Assembly: GCF_024494575.1 (NCBI RefSeq)
Contig: NZ_JANHDO010000004.1
Coordinates: forward strand, 1 to 64,000
Length of the DNA stretch: 64,000 nucleotides
Direction: 5' to 3'
Source of the DNA: Halorubrum salinum
GTDB lineage: Archaea > Halobacteriota > Halobacteria > Halobacteriales > Haloferacaceae
Shown here piece after piece: positions 1 to 43,095 of the stretch. The stretch's first letter is position 1; each line of letters starts with the position of its first letter. The position numbers and the translations under genes are program-made. The notes under the pieces were generated by a model, which was not told the origin of the DNA, did not search any database, and saw only the letters and a list, made by a program, of their open reading frames with translations.

Positions 1-590
1 TCCTCGATTACGTGCCCAACCTGCCGATCGGGAAGGCGTTCTCGGTGATGGACCAGATCATCGCCGAGACCGTGAAGGGGATCTCGGAGACGATCACCCA
101 GCCCTCGCTCATCAACCTCGACTACGCTGATGTATCTACGATCATGAACCAGGGTGGCATCGCCGTGATGTTAGTCGGCGAGACACAGGGCAAAAACAAG
201 ACCCAAGAGGTGGTCAACGACGCGATGAACCACCCGCTCTTGGACGTCGACTACCGCGGCGCGAGCGGCGGGCTCATCCACATCACGGGCGGCCCAGACC
301 TGACGCTGAAGGAGACAGAGGGAATCGCGAATAATATCACCGAGCGGCTAGAGGCGGACGCCAACGTCATCTGGGGCGCGCGTATCCGGGACGAGTATAA
401 GGGGAAGGTCCGTGTCATGGCGATCATGACGGGCGTTCAGAGCGCGCAGGTGCTCGGCCCCTCCACGCAGAAGCAGGCCGACAAATCACGAGCAGCAACA
501 AAGAGAGAAACAGATGTTGAAACTCGGATGGATACAGCGGTAGATGGCGGAGAAGACGATGATAGTGATGACGGAGTTGACGTAGTTTGA
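1..590 (+). CDS. ftsZ2: Cell division protein FtsZ2, C-terminal part (5' truncated by window edge)
   Basis: The frame is open from the left edge and ends at the TGA at 588-590. The visible 195 residues cover the end of the GTPase domain and the C-terminal domain of FtsZ; the run [18 protein letters not shown] and the later [12 protein letters not shown] are typical of the haloarchaeal FtsZ2 paralogue, the tubulin-like protein that acts with FtsZ1 at the division ring. The last 40 or so residues form a charged linker that is more AT-rich than the rest, with an acidic run and a terminal GVDVV. The usual FtsZ2 tail peptide, as I remember it, is close to GLDVI, so the partner-binding (SepF) tail may be kept in altered form. 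Nothing in the visible part looks broken. The gene marks the left border of the AT-rich island. Confidence 0.93.
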
Positions 591-738
591 TAAGCTATTC
601 AGGATACTATTTATCAAACCAAATCACATACATAATTAAAACCACATAATTATTTGGTTGAGAGTGAAAAAACAAGTAATTATTTAGACTAATTAAACTG
701 AATCTCAGGGATATATCAGAGGACAACTGTTTTGTAAC

Positions 739-2793
739 GTGTCAAGAAAGACATTGAGTATGGGTGAGGATGCGGCTGAGGATCCGGATGTTCATTTTGG
801 CGCGACTGATGATCATCCAGCTGAGGTTGACCAACTTGGATTTCAGCCATATGTGACTGCGGTCAAATATTTCCTCACAAATGATGAAACGGAACCACCA
901 CTTACACTTTCTGTAGAGGGCGAATGGGGGAGTGGAAAATCATCTTTCATGAGTCAACTTCGACGAGAGTTGGAAGAAGAGGGAGAAACAACTATTGAAT
1001 TCAACCCATGGAAGCATGAGCAGCAAGAGGCACTATGGGCATCTTTTGCACTAACATTTGTAGAGTCTCTCAAAAGTAGTGTTCCATGGTACAAGAGACC
1101 AGGGAAGTTTGCGATGATCAGTTGGCGCCGGCTTCTCTCTGAAACTAGCAACGGAGCACTAGCGAAGTTCGCAGCCATTCTTGCAATTTCAGTCGTTGTG
1201 GTTCTGAGTGGGCTTTGGTTTTGGTTAAACATCGGTATCGAATGGGTTAGCGCGAGTTCGGCAACGACAGGGTTAAACCTGCGATTCTGGCTAGGAACTA
1301 GTGGCGTTGTCGTCAGTATTCTTGCAACTGTAGATCTCAGCCGACGTGCGTACGGGGTATGGGCAACGTCTATAAATAGATCTTTTAAAAAACATTTAAA
1401 CGACCCTTCCTATCGGGAACGGACGGAGTTTCTACAAGCGTTTCAGTCCGATCTTGAACGCATACTGGACACATATGCTGGTAATGATCCAGTTTACGTT
1501 TTTATGGACGATGTAGATCGATGTACCGTTCCAAAGGCAGCTGATTTGATGCGATCGATTAATCTAATGGTATCAAGCAATTCAGATCTCATCTTTATTA
1601 TTGGATTAGATCGAGAGCGTGTTGCCGCCGGAATTGCTGCAAAGCACGAAACATTACTTAATCATATTAATGATGAGACAGAAGATGAGGCGATCGATTT
1701 CGGGTATCAGTATCTTGAAAAATTTATCCAAATACCATTTGTAGTCCCGGAGCCAAAAAAAGAAGACATCCAGAAACTTGTGCGGAGAGATGTGCTTAAT
1801 AAGGAAATAACAAAGCACAATACAGGTGGAGATAATATCGAGTCAATCTGGCAAACAGAACTCTCACCGAGGTTTAAATCATCACTTGATGACGTGGTAA
1901 AGATGGCGGCACCGGCTCTTGAAAATAATCCGCGACAAATAAAAAGATTCATTAATTTATATCGTCTTAGGGCGGTTCTTGCGGAATCAGAGGGACTACT
2001 TGCAGGAAAAAATGAAGAACCAGCAGGGGATATGATAACACTCTTTCAACTTGCGAAGTTTGTCGTAATAAGTATTCAATATCCTACGTTTGTAACCGTC
2101 GTGGCAAACGATCAAACTGCTCTTAAACGGATGTCTAAGTTTGCTAATGACAACGAAGGAGATGTTTCTGAACATGAAGTACTGCAAGATTGGGGGAGTG
2201 TAGACCCACTTCTTGACCTACTGACGTACGGGGAAGGTGATCAATATCGAATGGATCAAGTTTCAGTTGTAGATCTCCAAAAGATCTCACCACGTGTTGA
2301 TCGACCAATAGATACTGATCAGGAAGAGTCAGAGAAAACTGTCCAGATTGCATTCTTTGATAGCGCAGAATATGATCCTGATAAAATTCAATCGCAATTG
2401 CGGTCCGTCTCAGAAACGTTAGAGTTGGATCTACAACTAACTGTTTTTGAAAATGCGAAAGAGAAGCCGATTGCAGAGGTTGACGAGCTCTATTATTGTT
2501 TTATATGGATTGTTGATCCATCGCTTCTTGCAAAAACTTGGTTCCAGCGTCTTCGTGAAAATGCGCCAGAACAACTACAGGTTATCTCTCTAAGCCCTAA
2601 CACGGAATTTATTGATTCACCGACCCCTCAAGATTTCTGGTCTGTTGATGGGCTTGACGAATTAACAGATGTTCTCAAACAGCGATTACAAACAATTGAC
2701 GCTACTGATATGAGTGGGGGTTCCCGTTGGGAAGAATGGCAACGTTCCCTTTCGGGTCTTCAGAGTACTGACGACACTGAAATTATCGAATAA
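739..2793 (+). CDS. KAP-family P-loop NTPase with two membrane helices
   Basis: A 684-residue protein. Walker A is GEWGSGKS at about residues 61-68 and Walker B is VYVFMDDVDRC at about 252-262. Two hydrophobic helices at about 141-165 and 183-200 sit between Walker A and Walker B, the hallmark of KAP NTPases, where membrane helices are inserted in the ATPase fold. After the ATPase core a 'NNPRQIKRFINLYRL' helix is also typical of the family. The last 200 residues are of unknown fold. KAP proteins are membrane-bound ATPases of mostly unknown role, recurrent in mobile and defence islands. The start is GTG at 739, with ATG at 760 as alternative. The gene is clearly AT-rich, unlike the core genes of this genome, and is preceded by 148 bp of very AT-rich non-coding DNA. 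It is followed by a membrane protein that may work with it. Confidence 0.85.
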   Translation: MSRKTLSMGEDAAEDPDVHFGATDDHPAEVDQLGFQPYVTAVKYFLTNDETEPPLTLSVEGEWGSGKSSFMSQLRRELEEEGETTIEFNPWKHEQQEALWASFALTFVESLKSSVPWYKRPGKFAMISWRRLLSETSNGALAKFAAILAISVVVVLSGLWFWLNIGIEWVSASSATTGLNLRFWLGTSGVVVSILATVDLSRRAYGVWATSINRSFKKHLNDPSYRERTEFLQAFQSDLERILDTYAGNDPVYVFMDDVDRCTVPKAADLMRSINLMVSSNSDLIFIIGLDRERVAAGIAAKHETLLNHINDETEDEAIDFGYQYLEKFIQIPFVVPEPKKEDIQKLVRRDVLNKEITKHNTGGDNIESIWQTELSPRFKSSLDDVVKMAAPALENNPRQIKRFINLYRLRAVLAESEGLLAGKNEEPAGDMITLFQLAKFVVISIQYPTFVTVVANDQTALKRMSKFANDNEGDVSEHEVLQDWGSVDPLLDLLTYGEGDQYRMDQVSVVDLQKISPRVDRPIDTDQEESEKTVQIAFFDSAEYDPDKIQSQLRSVSETLELDLQLTVFENAKEKPIAEVDELYYCFIWIVDPSLLAKTWFQRLRENAPEQLQVISLSPNTEFIDSPTPQDFWSVDGLDELTDVLKQRLQTIDATDMSGGSRWEEWQRSLSGLQSTDDTEIIE

Positions 2794-2871
2794 AAACCTC
2801 TATTGAGTTACTCGGAGAATTACAAATCGGGCTTTCGATCTAACATCTTGACAGGAAGACGTAATAGCACG

Positions 2872-2886
2872 ATGGCGAGAAGCAGG
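2872..2886 (+). repeat. 15-bp direct repeat, copy 1
   Basis: The 15 bases atggcgagaagcagg occur here and again, identical, at 4701-4715. Both copies are followed within 7-12 bases by a ccgccc/tcgccc-like run. Both lie in intergenic DNA of the AT-rich island, upstream of a small gene. No function is known. Confidence 0.5.
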
Positions 2887-2897
2887 CCCTTCTCGCC
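2874..2897 (+). repeat. Perfect hairpin (9-bp stem, 6-nt loop)
   Basis: ggcgagaag at 2874-2882 pairs perfectly with cttctcgcc at 2889-2897. It lies about 80 bases after the KAP gene and could form in its 3' UTR as a processing signal or terminator-like structure, or be a palindromic protein-binding site. There is no T-run directly after it, so a classical terminator is not proven. Confidence 0.45.
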
Positions 2898-3037
2898 CCA
2901 CTGGCGAGTAGACCTCATTTTTAATAGAACTAGGTGTGCCGGCGTCGATATGGGAAGCTCAACTGCCACCAATAGTATCGGACAGGACACTTTACGGCGG
3001 TAGCCTTTTCTCTCTTGTTTGTTCAGTCGTATAACAA

Positions 3038-3835
3038 ATGAGCGGAGATAATCAACAAGAGAATGATGATCGTGAGAAGGGCTCAGTATCTGAAGAGGCG
3101 CTAAGACTAGAGTACGAAAACGCCAAACAGCGCCTAAGTACTCAGAAAGAGAGTATCAAGTCCTTTTCTAAGGAGGGAACGCGCTATTTTCAACTCGTTT
3201 TGATTCTTGTTGGAGTACCTGTTACATTACTGAGCGCCTTTGAGCCGACATCTCTTACCAGACTTGGAAGTTTGGTTCTGTCAGACAGATGTATATTTGA
3301 TAGCGGGGGTTGTATTCCAATAAGATACCTTACAATAAGTGGATTCACATGCTTACTGATAACTGGTCTCGTTAATATAGGAGCAGGCGGGTATGAGGCA
3401 TACAATACGCGTAGTATTTCCAACCCAAGCGACATACATGACCTAACTTCATTTGAAGATTCAACTCAAGAATATCTAAAGTCTCGACTTGAGGATTATA
3501 GAGATCGAATCGAACACAACGATCGACTAATCTTCTCTCTGGATCGGTGGCTAATGATTGGCAAGTTAGGACTTACTCTTTCAATGATGATCCTATCGGT
3601 GGTGGCATATACTCTCGCAGCAGGAGATACGGCCTCACCAATTGAGTTATTGGGTATCTTCTTTGGCATTGGAATGGTGTACCGGTTGTTGCTTCTTATT
3701 TTGCCTGAGAGCGTTTCTAACAGGGGCTCTATGCTAAGATTTGATCCGCCATACAGCCTTGAGTACATGAAAGAAATAGAGAAAAGAGATAAGGACACAT
3801 CCAACAGTTCAGCAGTAGACGAAGAGGGTGAGTAG
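3038..3835 (+). CDS. Membrane protein with coiled coil and four TM helices (SLATT-like layout)
   Basis: 265 residues. An acidic N-terminus is followed by a charged, probably coiled-coil helix at about 22-47, then TM helices at about 50-68 and 98-117, a second soluble helical stretch at about 140-170, and TM helices at about 172-194 and 202-222, ending in a hydrophilic tail. Two helix pairs separated by a coiled coil recall SLATT-type membrane effector proteins found with defence NTPases, but I see no diagnostic motif, so that is only a comparison. AT-rich like the KAP gene, same strand, 244 bases downstream of it. The two may form a module. Function unknown. Confidence 0.7.
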   Translation: MSGDNQQENDDREKGSVSEEALRLEYENAKQRLSTQKESIKSFSKEGTRYFQLVLILVGVPVTLLSAFEPTSLTRLGSLVLSDRCIFDSGGCIPIRYLTISGFTCLLITGLVNIGAGGYEAYNTRSISNPSDIHDLTSFEDSTQEYLKSRLEDYRDRIEHNDRLIFSLDRWLMIGKLGLTLSMMILSVVAYTLAAGDTASPIELLGIFFGIGMVYRLLLLILPESVSNRGSMLRFDPPYSLEYMKEIEKRDKDTSNSSAVDEEGE

Positions 3836-3903
3836 ATATATCGCAACAACGCGATCCAATAGAATAATATTGGTTATCCATCATCAAGCACTAACTCCTA
3901 CAA

Positions 3904-4269
3904 ATGGCCGAGGTAACATCCGCGGGAAAGATTTTACTCATCACCGCTTTTGCGGCGGGGGCGAGCATCGTACCGGCCTTCGCGATTATGAACCGCTTCA
4001 TACGCGAAAAAGAATCCAACTGGAGTACAAACCGTGGAATCGGTGTCATGATCATTGCCGGTCTACTATTCTCTGGAATGCTCACGGTCAATGGAATTGC
4101 TAATACATCGTACGCTCTTCTATCAACTGAAGCATTAGTTAGCCTCCTGATGATGCTCGTCGGCTCGTTCATCGGAATGGTAGTGATCGGAGCGTTCCTT
4201 GCGTACCCGCTCCATTGGTTCTTACAGTGGCAGGAACCGCCCGATGTGGTCAAAGAGTTTCAGCCATAA
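3904..4269 (+). CDS. Small hypothetical membrane protein
   Basis: 121 residues with three or four hydrophobic helices (about 7-28, 44-66, 78-105) and a short soluble tail rich in P and E. It starts 68 bases after the preceding membrane protein on the same strand. The GC content is slightly higher than in the two genes before it. I recognise no family. The reverse strand is also open here, but the plus frame gives the coherent membrane topology. Confidence 0.6.
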   Translation: MAEVTSAGKILLITAFAAGASIVPAFAIMNRFIREKESNWSTNRGIGVMIIAGLLFSGMLTVNGIANTSYALLSTEALVSLLMMLVGSFIGMVVIGAFLAYPLHWFLQWQEPPDVVKEFQP

Positions 4270-4385
4270 TCACGCTGTATTCAAGAGAAGTGCTGAATCG
4301 CGCCGACAGGTGAGTGGTTCATCAGTACCTGTCCGGGAACTGGGAGAAGATCGGACGGCGTAGTTCGACATCAGGTGCGGATGAA

Positions 4386-4631
4386 CTACTCTTTCAAATC
4401 CTCTGCCCAAAGCTCACTCAGACTAGCCTTCGGTGCTTCCTCGATGAGTCTCCGTTTCGCATCAACTGCGTTCGATATTGCGTTCAGCCGGTCAACATCA
4501 AGTTGTTCGTGCTCCTCATCGAATTCACCAGTCGCTATTCTCGCAGCCATCTCATTTATCGCTTTGTCGAGTGACTGGATCGTCTCTTCAATATTCAGAT
4601 CATCTTTCACCGCTATGTCTGGATCTGCCAT
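4386..4631 (-). CDS. Small acidic helical protein, unknown
   Basis: 81 residues, very acidic and almost entirely helical in composition, with no cysteines and no hydrophobic segment. The phase of E, L and R residues fits a helical bundle. The ATG is at 4629-4631. It stands alone on the minus strand between two plus-strand genes. Coding status is inferred from a coherent, haloarchaeal-type acidic composition; no family recognised. Confidence 0.55.
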   Translation of the reverse strand: MADPDIAVKDDLNIEETIQSLDKAINEMAARIATGEFDEEHEQLDVDRLNAISNAVDAKRRLIEEAPKASLSELWAEDLKE

Positions 4632-4700
4632 ATTCTCTCAGATCATATCAAACGAATTAATATTTTGTGGCACGTCGATCATCAACAGCTGGACTCAGAC

Positions 4701-4715
4701 ATGGCGAGAAGCAGG
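4701..4715 (+). repeat. 15-bp direct repeat, copy 2
   Basis: Identical to 2872-2886, 62 bases upstream of the zinc-ribbon microprotein start. In this copy the downstream half of the copy-1 hairpin is not preserved (ttcctaccgccc instead of cccttctcgccc), so only the sequence, not the stem, is shared. Confidence 0.5.
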
Positions 4716-4776
4716 TTCCTACCGCCCAAACAGCTCCCCCAAAATATTATACTGATAGTGAGGCAAACAAACAGCT

Positions 4777-4929
4777 ATGAACGTCTCACTGACCGGTGCC
4801 AACTGCGGCTCCTGCGATGAACAGGGAACACTAGTTCCTGTGAATATTAGTGATCTAAGTAATGATGCGAACAGTGAAGACTGGGTTATTTCATGGAAAT
4901 GTTCTTCCTGTGGTTCTGAAACCTCGTAG
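4777..4929 (+). CDS. 50-residue zinc-ribbon microprotein
   Basis: A short open frame that is easily overlooked. It encodes 50 residues with CGSC at 10-13 and CSSC at 42-45, i.e. a four-cysteine zinc ribbon with a 28-residue spacer. Haloarchaea have many two-CxxC zinc microproteins of this size, several known to act as regulators, so a regulatory or adaptor role is possible but unproven here. An A/T-rich stretch with ATATTATACTG at about 4744-4754 lies about 25-30 bases before the ATG, a good position for a TATA box and a leaderless transcript. It lies between the AT-rich island genes and the convergent chimera gene at 5125-8190. Confidence 0.6.
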   Translation: MNVSLTGANCGSCDEQGTLVPVNISDLSNDANSEDWVISWKCSSCGSETS

Positions 4930-5124
4930 AGTTTTATGCGAAGTGTCTGAGCTTGATGTCCGACAATACGGAGAGAGTCGGACAGTTACAGGTCTGATAC
5001 GGAACAACACCTCCGGATATTTTCAGACAGCAAGGGGGCTCAAGAGAGCTGTCGAATCAAGATCATCATCTGCTCAACTGTTTTGAGACATGTGGTGTGG
5101 AGTGTATCTGAGACTGATATGCCA

Positions 5125-8100
5125 CTACAGGAGGGTTTCATACGCCTGCTGGACCTCCTCAAATTCTTCTCGTGTCCCACCTTGATCTGGGTGTACATCT
5201 GTCATGAGACTGCGATAGGCATCTTTAATTTCCGCATCGGACGCTCCAGGCGACAGGTCAAGTACATCTAATGCGTCTGCGCGGTCATATTCATTCACGC
5301 CAGTCGCTTCGTTGATGAGCTGCTTACACCGTGGACAACACTGAACTGTCTCTCCAGTAGGTGTTTCGACGGTCTCTAACTCAACTTGGAAGTACTGTTC
5401 ACACACCATGCAGTAGGAGCCCGTGTGGTGGTTGTGAGAAGACGAACTGGTTCCGTTTGATTGCGAGTGAGACCTTCCACGCTGAGTTCGCTGGTTCCGC
5501 TGGCTCGAACGCGCACCAGTCTGGGACTGAATTGGAGGCGCTAGCCGAGAGTGAGAGAGCATTTCACGAAGCGTCTGGCCGTCGATCAACTCCATCTGAT
5601 CGCCGTAATCCTGACTTGCATCGCGAGCGGTCCCAGTGAAGTTACTCGAAGTAACAACGACAGCTTTGTCAGCACCGAATTGGTCTCGGACTCCTGCTGT
5701 CTGCTGAATTGTCGGGCGTCCGATCTTGTTACCTGGAGAGTACTGCTTGACCTGAATGATGAGTTTCTCGCCATCATCAGTAGCAACGACGTCGATCCCA
5801 CCGTCGCTTCCTTCCTCTGTCACCTCCGTCGAGTAGCCTAGATCCGAATACAGATCAGCAATCAAATGCTCAAACTCGTACGGAGAGTACGCGTGTAGGT
5901 GTTCGGCTTTCCACACGCCGCGTTTGAGATTTTGAAGATTCGTTGCGATTGCCTGCATCTCATTGACATCGATAGTCGCGAGAGCCTGCCTGATTGAGGC
6001 AGTGACCTCATCTGCAGTAAATCCGGTGTGAGAATAGTCGATATCGGTACGCGCCTGCTCTGCCTCCGTGGCTGCCGTGAGGAGTGAATCGAGCGTTTCG
6101 AATAATGGGACTCCAGAATCTGTCTTCATCGGGTCTGACTGAAGTGCTTGATTCAGTTGATCTCGGATTGGCGAGAGGTCATATGTCTCTAAGTGACGGC
6201 GTGAATTCGCATAGGTGGTTAGAGACTCCAGCCCAGCCTGCACATAGGCATCGACAGTGGCCGGCGTTTCAGCCGTCGATTGAACAGTAGTTATTGAAGA
6301 GTCGAAGCGGCTGAGATCGATTTTGCCCATTGGAAGTGCATCTTTGACCTCTGTGTACTGTTGTGTTCTTGAAATGGCCTGTCGACAGCGCGTAAGTGTA
6401 TTCTCTTCGACTGTACCATCGGTAGTCAGTTGTTCTTCAAACTCTTTCCGCCACTGTTGTGTGTTGAGTTCGCCGGCAACCGACTCGAGTTCCGACGAGA
6501 TCGTCTTCAAGTCAGTATGGACGTTATGAAGGCTTTCAAGCGTCTGTATGAGCGAACTATAGTCATCCTGCTGTGTTGCAAGCATTCGGAGTGCAGGGCC
6601 GAAGCGTGACTGCTGGATACTCTCCTCGGCAACCTGTGCCTGATCGAGAACTGCGTTCGGTGAAAGGCCTGCAAGCGCGCCTGATTCAATGGGATACTCA
6701 TCTTGGAGCTGATCGAGTGCTGACTCTAATCGGCGGGCTTGCACTCTCTTGCCAGTTGTCCGAGCGCCACCGTACACGGCACCACCCGTTAGGAGTGTTG
6801 CTGTGGCTTCAACAGCCCCCTTGCGTTGATTCGCACTGTCAACGGCTGTCATCGCCTCCTGATAACGATTGTTCTCAATAGCGGTCTCTGCCCGCGAAAG
6901 GGCATTTTTTCTCCCGAGTAGGTTTGCGACTGCTGCTGTAGCAGTTCCTAGGCCATCGGTGTCTCGGGCGCGTCCTAATGCTGTCAGTGCCTTCCCTCGT
7001 TGTCCGGTATATCTAGAGACCCAATTATGAGAGAACAAATACAGATCTTCGTCGCTATATCGGATGAAACCATCACCATGCGGATGAGAATCTTCCCAGA
7101 CAATCTCACCTGTTCCCGGATCGAGCGCGTAAAAATTTCCACCGTACGCGCCGATGAACACGAGGCCACCTGTATGTGATATATCGTATGGTCGGATGGT
7201 GGTATTCGTCCACGCTACCTCGCCAGTGGCGTACTCGATCGCTTGGATCTGGTCACCCGTTCCTACGAAAAGATGTGTCGGTCCAGCGTCATAATCTTCT
7301 ACCTTCGGACCGACGTTTACCGTCCATTCTTCCTCTCCAGTATTCGCGTTGATCCCTCGGATTGCGTCGTCTCGAGTGTGCGCTACAACGAGATCGAACG
7401 GTGTTGAACGGATATTCCACACCTTGATATCTGGTGTTTTCCATTCGACATTTCCAGTCTCGATATCTCGAGATACTACCCGTCCGCTGGTGACAGTATA
7501 GTCACCTCCCTCACGGTACTCACTCCCCGCAATGTGGATGATTGAATCACCTTCCACATACGGTGATCGAAAGGATTCACCATTGACAGCCCACTGCTGG
7601 TTCCCGTCTGAGTCTAATAGTGTGAGCCGTCCATCCTCATAGGTATAGTCGCTCGGTCCGCTATCTCGGGAGGTCGCATTATATTCGTGGATTAAGAACC
7701 CATCTCGAGCCCATGCTGGGTCGCCAACGATATCCATGTCTGTGGTGTACTCCCACAGTGTCTCTGTCGCCATTTCAGCTGCTGGGTAGGCCTTGATATC
7801 AGAGAGTACTGAGACAACGAGTGTATCGTCAGTGACGACTGGTGGGGAAACGTAATTCCTTGCTGTCAACTCCCAGCGCTTAGAGCGGTCTTTTATATCA
7901 TACGCGACAATCTTCGCTGGGTCAAACTCGGTTTCTTCCAACTTGAGGTAGTACGTATCACCGACTTGTGATCCGGGGGAAACTCTCGGACCACCAACCG
8001 CCTGAGAATCAGCGAACCCAAAGGTCCACTGCTGTTCTAGTGGGAGTCCGATCTCGTATTCTGAAGCGGAGTCGTCAGACTGCGCGGTAGCTGTCGTCAC

Positions 8101-8190
8101 ATTACCGCCTGTAGCTGTGAGCGCAGCGGTAGCAGTCAATACGTCCCGGCGAGTTGGAGAAAAAAAGACAGCACCATCGTCGTCATTCAT
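5125..8190 (-). CDS. Chimeric Tat signal / PQQ propeller / Mrr nuclease / zinc ribbon / J-domain protein
   Basis: One uninterrupted frame of 1021 residues. Order: a twin-arginine-like signal (SPTRRDVL around 11-18, then an A/T-rich apolar stretch to about 37); PQQ-like beta-propeller repeats from about 45 to 395 (recurring ALDPGTGEIVWE-type blades); a long helical region from about 400 to 755; an Mrr-type restriction endonuclease domain at about 768-875 with GSDGGIDVVA and IIQVKQY, matching the D...QxK catalytic pattern; a Ser/His-rich linker; a zinc ribbon (CMVC near 926, CPRC near 953); and a C-terminal J domain with VHPDQGG near 1000. Each domain is a known family, but I know of no described protein with this order. 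A J domain should recruit DnaK; a Tat signal implies export. The two conflict unless the N-terminus is a membrane anchor. AT-rich relative to the core genome, so probably acquired. Possible defence or surface-DNA-processing factor. Confidence 0.85.
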   Translation of the reverse strand: MNDDDGAVFFSPTRRDVLTATAALTATGGNVTTATAQSDDSASEYEIGLPLEQQWTFGFADSQAVGGPRVSPGSQVGDTYYLKLEETEFDPAKIVAYDIKDRSKRWELTARNYVSPPVVTDDTLVVSVLSDIKAYPAAEMATETLWEYTTDMDIVGDPAWARDGFLIHEYNATSRDSGPSDYTYEDGRLTLLDSDGNQQWAVNGESFRSPYVEGDSIIHIAGSEYREGGDYTVTSGRVVSRDIETGNVEWKTPDIKVWNIRSTPFDLVVAHTRDDAIRGINANTGEEEWTVNVGPKVEDYDAGPTHLFVGTGDQIQAIEYATGEVAWTNTTIRPYDISHTGGLVFIGAYGGNFYALDPGTGEIVWEDSHPHGDGFIRYSDEDLYLFSHNWVSRYTGQRGKALTALGRARDTDGLGTATAAVANLLGRKNALSRAETAIENNRYQEAMTAVDSANQRKGAVEATATLLTGGAVYGGARTTGKRVQARRLESALDQLQDEYPIESGALAGLSPNAVLDQAQVAEESIQQSRFGPALRMLATQQDDYSSLIQTLESLHNVHTDLKTISSELESVAGELNTQQWRKEFEEQLTTDGTVEENTLTRCRQAISRTQQYTEVKDALPMGKIDLSRFDSSITTVQSTAETPATVDAYVQAGLESLTTYANSRRHLETYDLSPIRDQLNQALQSDPMKTDSGVPLFETLDSLLTAATEAEQARTDIDYSHTGFTADEVTASIRQALATIDVNEMQAIATNLQNLKRGVWKAEHLHAYSPYEFEHLIADLYSDLGYSTEVTEEGSDGGIDVVATDDGEKLIIQVKQYSPGNKIGRPTIQQTAGVRDQFGADKAVVVTSSNFTGTARDASQDYGDQMELIDGQTLREMLSHSRLAPPIQSQTGARSSQRNQRTQRGRSHSQSNGTSSSSHNHHTGSYCMVCEQYFQVELETVETPTGETVQCCPRCKQLINEATGVNEYDRADALDVLDLSPGASDAEIKDAYRSLMTDVHPDQGGTREEFEEVQQAYETLL

Positions 8191-8346
8191 ATGATATGTA
8201 GCGATTACGAATTGATTTAATCGTAACGTATTTTCTAAGCCATGAACAGCTTTGCTGATTAACTAGTGTCCGAGAGTGAGACGAGAGTCGGACGCGATCG
8301 TGCTCGAACCCGCCCCGATCACGCCGGGAACCCACCTCGACCCGCA

Positions 8347-8354
8347 CCTTTATG
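8347..8354 (+). promoter_or_regulatory. TATA-box candidate for the integrase gene
   Basis: The run acctttatgt is centred about 30 bases before the ATG at 8381, the spacing expected for a leaderless haloarchaeal transcript. This supports 8381 rather than an upstream codon as the start. Confidence 0.4.
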
Positions 8355-8380
8355 TCCGGTTGACGCACCAGCCGGACGCG

Positions 8381-8968
8381 ATGAACCTACGACCTCACGA
8401 CGAGCAGGACGGGAAGAAGGTGTGGCTCTCCGAGAGCGAGGTCTCGAAACTCGAAGCCATCGCGAGCGACACCGAGCAGACGATCGCGTTCGGCCTCGGC
8501 GCGCGCTCCGGCTTGCGCTCGAAGGAAATCCTCGACGTCGCCCCGCAGGATGTCGTCGAGACGGACGCCGGCTGGGTGGTCCGGGTCTGGGAGGGGAAGG
8601 GCGACAAGTTCCGCGAGACGCCGATCCCGAGCGACCTCGCGATGCGGATCGAAACGATCGGCGACATGCGCGACGCCGCAGGCGACGAGCCGGTGCTCTC
8701 GATCTCGTCGACGCGCTCGCTCCGGCGCTGGCTCCAGGACGCCCGCGAGCAGCTCGCCGACCAGGAGGACGAACGCGGATGGCTGTTCCTCAGTACGCAC
8801 GACCTCCGGCGAACGTGGGCGAGTGCGCTCGCGGATGCGGAGGTGGACCCGCTGCTCGTTCTCGACTGGGGCGGCTGGGAGGACCTAGAGACGTTTCTAG
8901 ATCACTACAACGGGACCTATAGCCCGGCGGCACAGCGCCGAGCGCGGGAGAAGGTGGAATGGCTCTGA
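8381..8968 (+). CDS. Short tyrosine recombinase (site-specific integrase)
   Basis: 195 residues starting at MNLRPHDEQDGKKVWL, the usual N-terminus of a compact haloarchaeal integrase class that lacks a separate core-binding domain. Catalytic pattern: Arg46 in ARSGLRSKEI, Lys in GKGDKFRETP (73/76), HDLRR at 140-144 giving HxxR, a Trp-rich GGW motif near 164-166 and the nucleophile candidate Tyr176 or Tyr180 in HYNGTY. It would recombine attP with a chromosomal site, here probably the tRNA-Ala gene at the far end of the element. A longer reading from 8276 exists, but the TATA box and the conserved N-terminus favour 8381. GC-rich, in sharp contrast to the AT-rich DNA ending about 8265, so the gene marks the left end of a different replicon. 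The length looks normal for this class, not truncated. Confidence 0.85.
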   Translation: MNLRPHDEQDGKKVWLSESEVSKLEAIASDTEQTIAFGLGARSGLRSKEILDVAPQDVVETDAGWVVRVWEGKGDKFRETPIPSDLAMRIETIGDMRDAAGDEPVLSISSTRSLRRWLQDAREQLADQEDERGWLFLSTHDLRRTWASALADAEVDPLLVLDWGGWEDLETFLDHYNGTYSPAAQRRAREKVEWL

Positions 8969-9011
8969 TGGTGGCAAATTCTTTAATACGATACCGGTTC
9001 TATTCAGAATC

Positions 9012-9032
9012 GCCTACGGGTGGAGACGCCGG
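9012..9032 (+). repeat. 21-bp direct repeat, copy 1
   Basis: Identical over 21 bases to 9223-9243 (core tacgggtggagacgccgg). The two copies flank the 46-residue gene on the minus strand, 17 bases after its stop and 34 bases before its start. No similarity extends beyond the 21 bases. Confidence 0.6.
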
Positions 9033-9048
9033 TTAAGGGCGTACTCCA

Positions 9049-9189
9049 CTACCTCAACATCTCGACCAGCTTTGCTGCTGTTCTCATCGTTTCCAGCACG
9101 AGTTTTGCTTCTCGTACTCGGTCGAGATGGGTTTGTTCCTCGTCGTCTTTATCGGAGTCTTCCTCCGATTCGTTAGCGTTGTCACTCAT
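9049..9189 (-). CDS. 46-residue acidic small protein
   Basis: The ATG at 9187-9189 opens a 46-residue frame: a strongly acidic first half (SEEDSDKDDEE) followed by a basic amphipathic helix rich in V, L, R, K. The frame stays open upstream to 9276, but the upstream part crosses the 21-bp repeat and reads as low-complexity. Small proteins of this design are common next to integrases in haloarchaeal plasmids, possibly excision or copy-control factors; this is an inference. It is flanked by two direct repeats. Confidence 0.45.
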   Translation of the reverse strand: MSDNANESEEDSDKDDEEQTHLDRVREAKLVLETMRTAAKLVEMLR

Positions 9190-9222
9190 TGGGAGCGAAC
9201 GCGCAAAACCCGCCGATACCCT

Positions 9223-9243
9223 GCCTACGGGTGGAGACGCCGG
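9223..9243 (+). repeat. 21-bp direct repeat, copy 2
   Basis: Second copy of the repeat at 9012-9032, just upstream of the divergently read small gene. Its position in the promoter region would allow it to be an operator; the pair could also be the footprint of a small inserted cassette. Confidence 0.6.
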
Positions 9244-9317
9244 GTTTCTACGCATCAACGCCTTCGACGCTATCACCTAAAAAGGCTCGTGCAAGGGGTG
9301 CAAAGGCAAAGTCTTGC

Positions 9318-9584
9318 TCAGTCCGCCTGCGGTACGAACCGCCTCGCATCGAGATCGAGGGCGCGCTGCGCGGCCAGCCGTTCGACGAAGTCACACCGGG
9401 TCAGCTCGGGAAGCGTGCCGTCATCTTCAGGGATACGAACCACGTATGTCCGGCGACCCATCCGTTCGACATCGAGGTGCTGTTCGTCCGGAATCTCGCC
9501 GTCGTCGAGAACGTCGTCTTTCTGGAGTTCGTCGCGCGGGAGGGTGACAACACCCGATCCACCGTGGTCTTGGAGCTTCTGCAT
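9318..9584 (-). CDS. AbrB/SpoVT-type DNA-binding protein
   Basis: 88 residues. The segment SGVVTLPRDEL followed by DDGEIPDEQHLDVERMGRRTYVVRI is the swapped-hairpin beta fold of haloarchaeal AbrB-type regulators, normally dimers that bind the DNA backbone around operators. A TATA-like tttaagta (reading minus strand, about 9608-9615) lies about 27 bases before the ATG at 9582-9584, fitting a leaderless transcript. It is divergent from the structural operon that begins at 9721, with about 135 bases between, and is a good candidate for its repressor. The hairpin at 9691-9715 may be its target. Confidence 0.7.
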   Translation of the reverse strand: MQKLQDHGGSGVVTLPRDELQKDDVLDDGEIPDEQHLDVERMGRRTYVVRIPEDDGTLPELTRCDFVERLAAQRALDLDARRFVPQAD

Positions 9585-9690
9585 GGGCTGGCCGACCTGT
9601 CTGGGTTACTTAAATCTATGCCTGACATGGCTTCGAGGTTACTCTGTTCCATTTCAGCGGTGGGTTAAACACGGGGGGACAGGTCGCGCG

Positions 9691-9715
9691 TCTATCGGCC
9701 GCTCCGGCCGATAGA
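9691..9715 (+). promoter_or_regulatory. Perfect 10-bp inverted repeat ahead of the structural operon
   Basis: tctatcggcc at 9691-9700 and ggccgataga at 9706-9715 are exact inverse copies with a 5-base centre. The second arm ends 5 bases before the ATG at 9721, so the element could be a dyad operator for the divergent AbrB-like regulator or, if transcribed, a stable hairpin that hides the first start codon. Confidence 0.6.
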
Positions 9716-9720
9716 CAGAG

Positions 9721-9837
9721 ATGACCGACAGAGACCGGGTGAAAGAGACCCCCGATCCCTCCGGTAACGCGGAGGCCGACCGCAGCGAAGTACAGCACTT
9801 CCGAGACTGGCGACACGTCAACACCACCGATGCCTGA
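9721..9837 (+). CDS. 38-residue microprotein, first gene of the structural operon
   Basis: Encodes 38 charged residues, no hydrophobic segment, no cysteine. Its stop codon overlaps the next start (ATGCCTGA at 9830-9837), the same kind of coupling used throughout this operon, which is the main argument that it is translated. It might mainly serve as a leader to couple translation. Function unknown. Confidence 0.45.
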   Translation: MTDRDRVKETPDPSGNAEADRSEVQHFRDWRHVNTTDA

Positions 9838-10213
9838 CGGCGAGGTCGCCGTCCGGCAGAACGGCCACGAACACGCAGTCGACGCGCCGGACCTCGACGG
9901 TCAGGTGCTCGTCTGCCTCGACCACGGCCACGTCGAGGTTCCGGCAGGGCTCGACGTTCGGTACCAGGAGGACGCCGATGACGATCTCGAAACGGATGGC
10001 GGGGTGACCGCCGACAGAACGTCCGTCGAGATGCGCGGTGCTGGTATCGGTGGCGAACTGGCGATGTGGGCGCTCGTCGCGTCTGGGCTTCTGCTTATTT
10101 CGTCTGGTTACCTCTTCGGTGTCGACTCCACTGGGTCCGGACTGATCGCTGGAGCCGGCGGGATACTGCTCGCGTTCATCGCGGGTCCGGGATACTGGAG
10201 TGATCTCTCGTGA
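9830..10213 (+). CDS. Small membrane protein with acidic N-terminal domain
   Basis: 127 residues. About 80 hydrophilic residues rich in D, V and H are followed by two hydrophobic helices (about 77-95 and 100-117) and a short tail. It overlaps the previous frame by 8 bases and shares GTGA with the next one at 10210. Its place directly before the spike-like gene resembles the small virion membrane protein that precedes the spike gene in pleolipoviruses, though no sequence motif proves this. Confidence 0.6.
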   Translation: MPDGEVAVRQNGHEHAVDAPDLDGQVLVCLDHGHVEVPAGLDVRYQEDADDDLETDGGVTADRTSVEMRGAGIGGELAMWALVASGLLLISSGYLFGVDSTGSGLIAGAGGILLAFIAGPGYWSDLS

Positions 10214-29072: not shown

Positions 29073-29144
29073 TGGACTCGCGGGGATTTGAACCCCGGGC
29101 CTTCCCCGTGCCAGGGGGATGATCTACCACTGATCTACGAGCCC
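29073..29144 (-). tRNA. tRNA-Ala (anticodon GGC)
   Basis: The minus strand folds into a complete 72-base cloverleaf: acceptor GGGCUCG pairing with CGAGUCC, D-arm, anticodon stem UCCCC/GGGGA with loop CUGGCAC (anticodon GGC), and T-arm CCGGGG/CCCCGC region around GUUCAAAUC. The acceptor has the G3-U70 wobble pair, the universal identity mark of tRNA-Ala, and A as discriminator. CCA is not encoded. The tRNA 3' end faces the mobile element, the usual orientation for an integrase target. Confidence 0.93.
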
Positions 29145-39678: not shown

Positions 39679-42600
39679 TCACGGTTCGAGCGCCCGTCGA
39701 CGGATCGCGACCCACCCGAAGAGGATGACGGAAAGGAGCGTAGCGAGCGGACCGAAACCCGCGACGTCCTCTGCGGTCGCCCGAATCGGTGCGTTCTCGT
39801 ACGTCGGGGTCGCGACGCGTCTCGTCGGGTCTGTAGTCGTATCCGGGTTCGTAGCGACGTCACGCGCCGTCGCGGTACCACCGTCGATCCCGAGGCCGCG
39901 GCCCGCACCGCTCCCCGCGGCGCGATCGGACACGATCATCGCCGCGACGACCGACATCGATAGAGATCGCGTCTCTGACACGTCTCGAACGTCCGCCGCC
40001 GGTCGAGTGCCGAAGCGCTCCCCGTTCTGGGAGGGTAACTGCCACCTCGCGGTGTCCTCTGACGACCACAGGCGACTGTATCCACCCGAGCGGGTACCAC
40101 CACCGCCACCCGAACCGGATCCCCCTCCGACGCTTCCACCTCCTCCGCTGCCGCCACCACCAGTGACGCTACCGCCACTGCCGCCACCGCCCCCGGCGAC
40201 AGCACCGCCACCGCCACCCGCGGCACCGCCACCACCAGCCGAAGCACCGCCTCCACCGGTGACGCTATCGGGTTCGCCGCTTCCGTCCGCTTCGTCCGGG
40301 TTGCGTACGGTGTCTACCGCCTCGAACGTCACCGTCGTCGAGACGGTGTGATCGGCGTCCGGATCGGACGTAGCGTCCCGCAAAGTGTCGTCCGTGACGC
40401 GGAACGTGGCGGTGAACGACTCGCCGTCGTCCGGCGTGTCGTCCGTCGCCAGTGCTCCGTCACCCTCCGCGACGACAAACAGCCCCTGACCGTCGAGGTA
40501 CACGGACGAGTTGTCGGGCACGCTCCCGACGTCGTCCGTCTGAACCGCCGTACCCATTGACCCGGTCGGGGCGATGCCGAACTGAACGCCGTCGAGTCGA
40601 GCGAGGTCACGACCCGTGGCGAGAGAGACGTTTCTCGCGGCGGGCAGTCCGGTGAGTCCCGACGCGTTCACCGCGTACACGACGGTGTCGTCCGGCCGGA
40701 TCGTCGACGATGACGCAACCGTTCCGACAGCGATCGCATCCCTAACCGCGGCGGCGGAATCGAACTCCGAAGCGTCGACCTGGTCCGTCGTGTACGACGT
40801 CACGCCCTCCGTCGACCGATCTCCGAGAGTTACGAACGTCCTATCGGCCGTCGTGACCGCTCCGTATTCGGATCGAACTGCGATCTCGTAGGTTCCCGGT
40901 GAGAAGGCCCCATCGTCCGTCGATACGGTCACCGATTCAACGGTTGCTCCCGGCCCCGCTGTGACCAGTTCGTCGCTCAGGGAGGCGTTTCTCGCGGCGT
41001 ACGTGTTGAATCGGATCGGCGTTGTGCCTTGAGTAGGAGTCGAAAGTTCGACAGTTGCAACGTTCTGAGTATCCCTCTCTACTTCTACGGTTGATTCGTC
41101 ATATGTCCCAGACAATTCAAGCAAAAAATTTGATCCGATCTCAGTTTTGTTTTGCATATCCGGCACATTAATGGCTAGATCCTGATGTTCAATCACGTCG
41201 AGTCTTTGAGATATAGTTTGATTCGAGTCAACATCGGTTATATTTAACTCATATGTGCCGGGGATAGGTGGTGAGATTACTTGTTTAAGCTGTGTCTTAT
41301 TATTTATATCAAATTCTCTTTTGTGGACAGATGATGAATTTATTTCAGAATACGTCAAAGTGATATGTCTACCTACCGAATCAGAATTGAAGTGTATTAT
41401 TTGCTCTGCAGTTGTCACAGTGCTTGAAGCCTCAGGATCAAAAGAAGTGTTTGTTAAACTAAGTATGTTTTCACCAAAGAGCGAACTACTATTAATTATG
41501 TAATCTCCCTCTCTAGTTTGAGAACTATTAAACACGGAAACATTTTGTGAGGTATATGCCGGAAAAACATGCGCATTACCGCGAACAAGCTCAAGATCTC
41601 CTAGATTATTTGCTTCCGAATAAAATCCGAAATTTATATTATTTGGAACTGATGTATTTTTTGGGATATCAATTAGATGGCTGATTCTGATTGGGACATA
41701 ATTACTTTTGGAAATGAACGGACCTCCTGTATTTGATGTGACATTCTCTATAGAAACAGCGCTAATGTGTGGTTGCTCAGGATCAGAAGTTTCTGCTGTG
41801 TATAAGAACAGCTTTAGCTTATTCTCATATACCTCATACTCACCAAAACTTTCTGATATTTGGATTGTTGAGGGTGGATGATCAAAATACTCTACCGTTA
41901 TATTTCCGTTATTGCCGCTTAGATTTGTATTAAACTCGAATAGTAGTGTATTCTGTGGCTGAGAGTCTTCACTAGGAGCAGTCTGGTAGTATATGGGTTC
42001 TTGTACGAGCTCAATCGGAATTGGCGCTGTTATTGTGGCGGTGGCCATCGCATGTATTGTCTGCTTATCAGGTCCATAGTTATCGGGATGAGCGGTGACT
42101 GCGATCTCTGTTGTCCCTTCAATTAGACTATCATCTATTGTAATCGCCGTTTTTTCACCCTGAACCTGTCCAAGAGGTGTATCCAAGTTCCCTTTAGAAG
42201 ACAAGTTCCACACTAGAATGTAGTCAGATGTTTTGTTAGTTAAATGAACATTTTCTATGGTAACTGATCCATTATTTCGGTCGTATAATCGAGGACCAGT
42301 CGTGATTTCAGCGGAAGAGTGGATTTTGAATGAAATGTCCTCTTTTTGTTCATCCTGCTCAACTACATATCTGATCTCATCATCAATCTCGGTGGTATCA
42401 GCCCTATATTTTGAGATGGATGTGCTATCGATATCAGTTATTACCACGTCAAATTTATCTAGGCTAGTGATTGCAGAGCTTTTGACAATTATTGTAGCAT
42501 CCGAGCTACTCGGATTTTTTATAAATACTTCCTCAGCTTTGGTCGACTCACCATTAATTAACTTATACGATGAAGGGTCTTGAGAAAGTATTGCACCCCG

Positions 42601-42834
42601 TTGAGCTAATTCACCAACATTGATCTTAACGTCGTGGGACGTGCTGTAAATATTAATTCCGCTAATCGTTTGTTCTTCGTTTGATGAGACTGTGATGTCA
42701 TTAACTCCGTCTACGCTCCACAAAAACCCGGATGCAGGTGTAGTAATAATACCAATCAGACCAATAACCACAACCAGAATCAGTGTAACGGTCACGAAGA
42801 TCGGCACGTACCGAGATAAATTTGTCAGGTCCAT
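39679..42834 (-). CDS. Giant surface glycoprotein-like protein with Gly-rich stalk
   Basis: 1051 residues. A single N-terminal TM helix (FVTVTLILVVVIGLIGII, about 14-31) without a clear cleavage site, about 800 residues of T/S/N-rich ectodomain with many N-x-S/T sequons, a Gly-rich stalk (GGGGSGG-type) at about 860-920, and a C-terminal TM helix followed by Arg residues. The overall design matches haloarchaeal adhesin or S-layer-like proteins. Codons for residues 1 to about 578 (41100-42834) are distinctly AT-rich, whereas the rest is GC-rich like the core genome, so the exposed part appears to have been replaced by foreign DNA. Divergent from a polytopic membrane protein at 43096. Confidence 0.7.
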   Translation of the reverse strand: MDLTNLSRYVPIFVTVTLILVVVIGLIGIITTPASGFLWSVDGVNDITVSSNEEQTISGINIYSTSHDVKINVGELAQRGAILSQDPSSYKLINGESTKAEEVFIKNPSSSDATIIVKSSAITSLDKFDVVITDIDSTSISKYRADTTEIDDEIRYVVEQDEQKEDISFKIHSSAEITTGPRLYDRNNGSVTIENVHLTNKTSDYILVWNLSSKGNLDTPLGQVQGEKTAITIDDSLIEGTTEIAVTAHPDNYGPDKQTIHAMATATITAPIPIELVQEPIYYQTAPSEDSQPQNTLLFEFNTNLSGNNGNITVEYFDHPPSTIQISESFGEYEVYENKLKLFLYTAETSDPEQPHISAVSIENVTSNTGGPFISKSNYVPIRISHLIDIPKNTSVPNNINFGFYSEANNLGDLELVRGNAHVFPAYTSQNVSVFNSSQTREGDYIINSSSLFGENILSLTNTSFDPEASSTVTTAEQIIHFNSDSVGRHITLTYSEINSSSVHKREFDINNKTQLKQVISPPIPGTYELNITDVDSNQTISQRLDVIEHQDLAINVPDMQNKTEIGSNFLLELSGTYDESTVEVERDTQNVATVELSTPTQGTTPIRFNTYAARNASLSDELVTAGPGATVESVTVSTDDGAFSPGTYEIAVRSEYGAVTTADRTFVTLGDRSTEGVTSYTTDQVDASEFDSAAAVRDAIAVGTVASSSTIRPDDTVVYAVNASGLTGLPAARNVSLATGRDLARLDGVQFGIAPTGSMGTAVQTDDVGSVPDNSSVYLDGQGLFVVAEGDGALATDDTPDDGESFTATFRVTDDTLRDATSDPDADHTVSTTVTFEAVDTVRNPDEADGSGEPDSVTGGGGASAGGGGAAGGGGGAVAGGGGGSGGSVTGGGGSGGGGSVGGGSGSGGGGGTRSGGYSRLWSSEDTARWQLPSQNGERFGTRPAADVRDVSETRSLSMSVVAAMIVSDRAAGSGAGRGLGIDGGTATARDVATNPDTTTDPTRRVATPTYENAPIRATAEDVAGFGPLATLLSVILFGWVAIRRRALEP

Positions 42835-43095
42835 ATTGTTCGTGTAGTGCGACCGGACCTACAGCTAAGGGACCCTAACGCCGGAATTGTTGCGTCACGA
42901 GTCAATCACGTAACCGAAGTCTCACGTCGCGGATGGTTGAACTCGGTTGGATGATTTATATATCAGTTGCGAATGATGATGTTTCGCTCGTCAAAAACGA
43001 TCGGCAGGATAGGTGTGGGCAGCGTTATCGTATCTAAGTCCTCGAAGCGGCCGAAGGCACAAAGTTCACGGTGTCCCGTGCGCGAGGTGGTGCAA

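What the first reader, a model, noticed from the sequence alone, without database searches (positions are those of the whole stretch)
5125..8190. A single protein that joins a Tat-like signal, a PQQ-type propeller, an Mrr nuclease domain, a zinc ribbon and a J domain
Each part can be read directly in the frame. Mrr domains cut DNA, J domains recruit DnaK, propellers bind ligands or partners; the combination with an export-like N-terminus is not one I know. It could be a surface-tethered DNA-degrading factor, or a cytoplasmic sensor whose propeller detects an intruder and whose J domain brings in chaperone. AT-rich codon use shows foreign origin.
Basis: partly seen in the sequence, partly recalled or inferred. 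Interest (0 to 1): 0.82.

Follow-up and report, generated by a model that had tools for sequence, protein, structure and literature searches.

The report
Haloarchaeal propeller–nuclease with J-domain tail
A salt-loving archaeon carries, on a mobile DNA element, a rare single protein that probably senses something outside the cell with an exported propeller and cuts DNA inside with a tethered nuclease that can also call in a chaperone; relatives show the architecture is real, but its antiviral role is inferred, not shown.

Summary
Window 5125-8190 (minus strand) is one intact 1021-aa ORF with a twin-arginine signal, a PQQ/BamB-type propeller, an Mrr nuclease with intact catalytic residues, a four-cysteine zinc ribbon and a J domain with its HPD motif. 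Eight intact homologues (22-46% identity) and one decayed copy in other haloarchaea show it is a family, not a fusion artefact. All nine intact members share Tat motif, propeller, helical linker and Mrr. The J domain is in only four, the zinc ribbon in three, so the tail is an add-on. After the propeller every member has a weakly hydrophobic, charge-poor segment followed by basic residues. Homologous helix-Mrr modules behind two or more unmistakable membrane spans support tethering. The gene is low in GC, sporadic and mobile; here it lies in an inferred ~37-kb element at tRNA-Ala. Most likely it is a membrane-tethered surveillance nuclease that works like, but is not related to, Zorya or SNIPE. 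The membrane span, the trigger and the defence role remain unproven.

The parts
5125..8190 (-). Whole ORF, 1021 aa (ATG start, stop included)
8080..8190 (-). Twin-arginine signal, residues 1-37 (RRDVL at 14-18, h-region 17-35)
   Evidence: RR-x-[VFIL]-L in 9/9 intact members
6991..8070 (-). PQQ/BamB-type beta-propeller, residues about 41-400, probably 7-8 blades by eye; no cysteine in it
   Evidence: Pfam PQQ_2; cysteine list; blade count read by eye, not modelled
6820..6990 (-). Stalk, residues 401-457, with invariant A434, Y443, A446
   Evidence: alignment A1
6751..6819 (-). Candidate membrane-spanning segment, residues 458-480, followed by basic residues
   Evidence: weak, see caveats
6121..6750 (-). 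Helical linker, residues 481-690
   Evidence: profile over all members
5896..6120 (-). Pre-Mrr helical module, residues 691-765, shared with Mrr proteins that have other N-termini
   Evidence: hmmsearch
5551..5895 (-). Mrr-type PD-(D/E)XK nuclease domain, residues 766-880 (E774, D800, Q813, K815)
   Evidence: Pfam 6e-29; invariant columns; motif in 9/9
5416..5550 (-). S/R/Q/H-rich linker, residues 881-925
   Evidence: sequence
5311..5415 (-). Zinc ribbon, residues 926-960 (CxxC ... CCxxC)
   Evidence: sequence; conserved in G374 and G229, absent from G169
5128..5280 (-). J domain, residues 971-1021, HPD at 1000-1002
   Evidence: Pfam, AlphaFold and Foldseek
739..2793 (+). Neighbour: KAP-family P-loop NTPase with weak similarity to QatA; not shown to belong to the system
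8276..8968 (+). Neighbour: tyrosine recombinase
29073..29144 (-). tRNA-Ala(GGC); its 3' 18 bp recur at G000:C5 18237-18254, giving the inferred right end of the integrated element

Best explanation
It is a single-chain, membrane-tethered surveillance nuclease of haloarchaea. The Tat pathway exports the N-terminal propeller, a weak membrane segment after it anchors the chain, and the helical linker and Mrr nuclease stay in the cytosol. The propeller or stalk detects a surface event, most simply a virus or conjugative element at the envelope, and the tethered nuclease then cuts DNA near that site or, if signalling spreads, host DNA. In four of the nine intact members a J-domain tail can recruit DnaK to activate, reset or remove the assembly. 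Shown: domains, catalytic and HPD residues, conserved Tat motif, the family, mobile and low-GC context. Inferred: membrane span, orientation, ligand, substrate, role of DnaK, defence.
For: Nine intact members with the same order, one ORF each. Tat motif 9/9 and TatC in all eight genomes checked. Family-mean hydropathy has its two highest peaks at 458-476 and 17-35; an insertion-energy scan puts both segments in the top four in all nine members and in the top two in six. More net positive charge after than before the segment in eight of nine. The pre-Mrr module also sits behind two (L036) or more (L008) strong membrane spans. Tat-dependent spans can be weakly hydrophobic with basic residues after them (PMC5449189). 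DnaK in all eight genomes checked. Context: HmaB-like methylases flank G229's copy; a DrmC-like PLD protein lies beside G247's and its counterpart beside G456's. Precedents: Zorya and SNIPE; bNACHT25, a nuclease-effector defence protein, needs DnaJ.
Against: The candidate span is weak: the peak is no higher than in shuffled columns (P 0.38), and insertion energies of 0.4-4.2 kcal/mol are far above the strong spans of L008 and L036. Basic residues lie on both sides of it. No structure of propeller or Mrr was obtained. No companion gene is conserved across the family; only G247 and G456 were seen to share neighbours. The window's propeller shows no ligand site I could identify. Nothing tests defence directly.
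Confidence: 0.48

Rival explanations
1. Wholly cytoplasmic sensor-nuclease: the N-terminus is not an active signal and segment 458-480 is a buried helix or hinge; the propeller binds an intracellular partner and gates Mrr.
For: Weak hydropathy of the segment. Propeller-bearing kinases beside a stand-alone Mrr protein in Halomicrobium lack a Tat-like start in the sequence. L012 and L014 carry the same Mrr module with no predicted span.
Against: RR-x-[VFIL]-L followed by a hydrophobic stretch in 9/9 diverged members is hard to explain without export.
Confidence: 0.25
2. Wholly exported or surface-tethered nuclease that degrades extracellular or incoming DNA.
For: Conserved Tat motif; Tat is the main export route in haloarchaea (PMC2910488).
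Against: A J domain with intact HPD would lack DnaK and ATP outside; the helix-Mrr module recurs in proteins with no export signal, some fused to HhH domains.
Confidence: 0.12
3. Not a defence protein: an envelope-stress or DNA-uptake regulator, or selfish cargo that protects its own mobile element. (Concerns the role, so it overlaps the topology readings above.)
For: Mobile, low-GC context; defence-type neighbours found at only some loci; Halomarina surroundings are mostly metabolic.
Against: Mrr-type effectors are mainly known from restriction and defence; HmaB-like and DrmC-like neighbours at some loci.
Confidence: 0.3

Closest known systems
Zorya type I (ZorAB plus ZorD)
   Same: Envelope-sensing membrane part coupled to a cytosolic nuclease; ZorD has an Mrr-like domain and its profile matches the window Mrr region (E 6.6e-16; PMC11890865)
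   Different: Zorya is four proteins with a motor; here one chain, no ZorA/ZorB/ZorC found beside it, no helicase
SNIPE
   Same: Single membrane-bound chain with a cytosolic nuclease that cuts DNA during injection (PMC13190303)
   Different: GIY-YIG nuclease and DUF4041, N-terminal span, bacterial; no propeller, J domain or Tat signal described
bNACHT25
   Same: PD-(D/E)XK nuclease effector in a defence protein that needs DnaJ (PMC12169576)
   Different: NACHT module; DnaJ acts in trans, whereas here a J domain is fused
Type IV / Mrr restriction enzymes (PF04471; PADLOC mREase_IV)
   Same: Mrr catalytic domain with D...[QE]xK
   Different: No DNA-modification reader found; N-terminus is an exported-type propeller
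BamB / PQQ_2 propellers
   Same: Propeller family
   Different: Fused to a nuclease in a cell without a bacterial outer membrane (general knowledge)

Membership tests
Mrr_cat nucleases (PF04471) | Profile match over the catalytic domain | tested here: met
   101 bits against a cut-off of 21, residues 766-878
Mrr_cat nucleases (PF04471) | Intact acidic and lysine catalytic residues | tested here: met
   D800 and K815 invariant; motif [GAS][IV]D...[QE]xK in 9/9
Mrr_cat nucleases (PF04471) | DNA cleavage | not testable with these tools
   needs a biochemical assay
J-domain co-chaperones | J fold with HPD | tested here: met
   Pfam 7e-11, confident model, Foldseek J-domain matches, HPD at 1000
J-domain co-chaperones | Stimulates DnaK | not testable with these tools
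   DnaK gene present
Tat substrates | Twin-arginine motif plus h-region | tested here: met
   9/9 members
Tat substrates | Tat-dependent localisation | not testable with these tools
   needs KK mutant and fractionation
Single-span membrane proteins | Clear transmembrane segment | tested here: inconclusive
   family peak at 458-476 but weak; shuffle P 0.38
Zorya | ZorA/ZorB motor genes alongside | tested here: not met
   no PADLOC ZorA or ZorB match among the five neighbouring ORFs scanned
SNIPE | GIY-YIG nuclease and DUF4041 | tested here: not met
   neither among the Pfam matches of the protein
Type IV restriction with modification reader | DNA-modification-binding domain | tested here: not met
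   none among the Pfam or NCBIfam matches

The most novel reading that the evidence does not exclude
A one-protein transmembrane receptor-nuclease: an exported propeller detects invaders at the cell surface and directly gates a cytosolic Mrr nuclease, with a fused J domain that makes DnaK part of the immune response.
Probability: 0.25. Interest if true: 0.8.

Novelty: new variant of a known kind. Interest (0 to 1): 0.58.

Why it matters
If right, archaea have a single-chain counterpart of membrane-localised nuclease defences known from bacteria, with outside sensing and inside cutting in one molecule, and a fused co-chaperone that makes the link between Hsp70 and immunity directly testable. 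The public annotation seen here calls a homologue only 'restriction endonuclease', and starts it 22 residues late so that the Tat signal is missing.

Tried and rejected
Fusion or assembly artefact: rejected, because nine intact members share the core in single ORFs. A second copy on G000:C5: rejected as independent evidence, because C5 1-10210 is the exact reverse complement of window 1-10210 at both contig ends. Column-shuffle test for the membrane segment: not significant, P 0.38. Viral contigs with two queries: no relative; phage records: no full-length relative. Genome-contig scans: no full-length relative. Plasmid records: one other full-length match, Halomarina. Phylum sample of 295 genomes: only the window's own at E <= 1e-60. 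A conserved partner gene: none seen that is common to the family. KAP NTPase as part of a Qat system: only QatA-like similarity, far under the NCBIfam cut-off, and no QatB, QatC or QatD among the five neighbouring ORFs scanned. Literature searches for the combination found no description in the held library.

Full report
The ORF and its domains. Window 5125-8190 on the minus strand is a single 1021-aa frame. Pfam finds PQQ_2 (8e-17), Mrr_cat (6e-29) and DnaJ (7e-11). The Tat-like N-terminus, the four-cysteine zinc ribbon and the HPD motif are visible in the sequence and recovered in relatives.

A real family. A search of 391 haloarchaeal genomes gave relatives with propeller and Mrr in one frame, and two family searches added G456 and G501. 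Counting the window there are nine intact members (window, G374, G229, G169, G501, G377, G247, G456, G132) and one copy in G317 broken over several frames. Identity to the window is 22-46%; the Mrr part (31-52%) is better kept than the propeller (17-51%). In a phylum sample only the window's own copy matched. The handles seen run to about 500 genomes, so the family is rare. No bacterial genome set was searched with the family profile; plasmid records gave only the Halomarina full-length match.

Core and tail. All nine have RR-x-[VFIL]-L, propeller, linker and Mrr with D...[QE]xK. HPD is present in the window, G374, G229 and G169 only; the ribbon in the first three. G501, the closest relative at 46%, stops just after Mrr. 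The tail is therefore optional.

Topology. Family-mean hydropathy has its top two peaks at 458-476 and at the Tat h-region 17-35. An insertion-energy scan, with parameters I wrote from memory and use for ranking only, puts both segments in the top four in all nine members, with the post-propeller segment at 0.4-4.2 kcal/mol, comparable to the Tat h-regions but far from the strong spans of L008 and L036. Shuffling columns reproduces such a peak often, P 0.38. So the span is plausible, not proven. Net charge is more positive after it than before in eight of nine; G169 is the exception. Support from outside comes from the pre-Mrr module (residues 691-770), found by profile with the same Mrr behind multiple spans in L008 and two in L036, behind HhH in L014, and with other N-termini. 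TatC and DnaK are present in all eight genomes tested, which did not include G456 and G501.

Context. The gene region is 0.51-0.53 GC in a window mostly at 0.62-0.70. If C4 and C5 are joined through their identical 10,210-bp ends, an 18-bp copy of the tRNA-Ala 3' end lies at C5 18237, about 180 bp beyond a tyrosine recombinase gene, so the gene sits in an integrated element of about 37 kb with an Orc1/Cdc6-type gene. This rests on the join and was not confirmed by an empty site. Elsewhere: Halomarina plasmid beside an HNH gene; G229 between two HmaB-like methylases; G247 with a DrmC-like PLD protein and a 604-aa ORF, and G456 with counterparts that look alike at their starts; G169 near relaxase and coupling-protein genes.

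Mechanism. Proposed: outside sensing, tethered cutting inside, with DnaK as an optional regulator. Zorya and SNIPE show that membrane placement can direct nucleases to injected DNA, and bNACHT25 shows a nuclease-bearing defence protein that depends on DnaJ. These are analogies, not membership: defining features of Zorya and SNIPE were not found in what was scanned.

Limits. No activity, localisation or infection experiment; no model of propeller or Mrr; neighbour scans covered only a few ORFs per locus; the literature search was limited to the held library.

Noticed in passing
window 1-10210 and G000:C5 1-10210: Exact reverse-complement identity of two contig ends; probably one sequence split by assembly rather than two gene copies.
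   Followed up: partly
G000:C5 18237-18254 and window 29073-29090: 18-bp copies of the tRNA-Ala 3' end, the former beside a tyrosine recombinase gene: likely ends of a ~37-kb integrated element. A further 15-bp copy at C5 18110.
   Followed up: partly
G000:C5 9621-10781 (window 1-590 is its 3' part): FtsZ-type gene inside that element, 95% identical in DNA over most of its length to a copy on G000:C2.
   Followed up: partly
L037-L043: A second haloarchaeal protein of about 660-760 aa, found in seven genomes, that reads as Mrr, then membrane segments, then propeller- and TPR-like sequence; only Mrr and the spans were tested, on L037.
   Followed up: partly
L008, L036, L012, L014, L052, L010: The helix-Mrr module occurs behind interchangeable N-termini (membrane spans, HhH, other helical sequence, or almost alone).
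   Followed up: partly
L032, L033, L034: Haloarchaeal proteins with several zinc-ribbon-like motifs by eye plus a J domain, a possible source of the tail.
   Followed up: no
L090-L092, L095 (Halomicrobium pHmuk01): Cluster of kinase and PQQ-propeller genes around a stand-alone Mrr protein, seen in three related genomes.
   Followed up: partly
NZ_CP100449.1 351624-354698: Annotated start of the Halomarina homologue is 22 residues downstream of the ORF start and drops the Tat signal.
   Followed up: yes
window 41001-43000: Low-GC stretch (0.38-0.42) over a 1051-aa ORF at 39679-42834.
   Followed up: no
window 739-4269: KAP NTPase, a 265-aa ORF and a 121-aa hydrophobic ORF next to the gene; partnership untested.
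   Followed up: no
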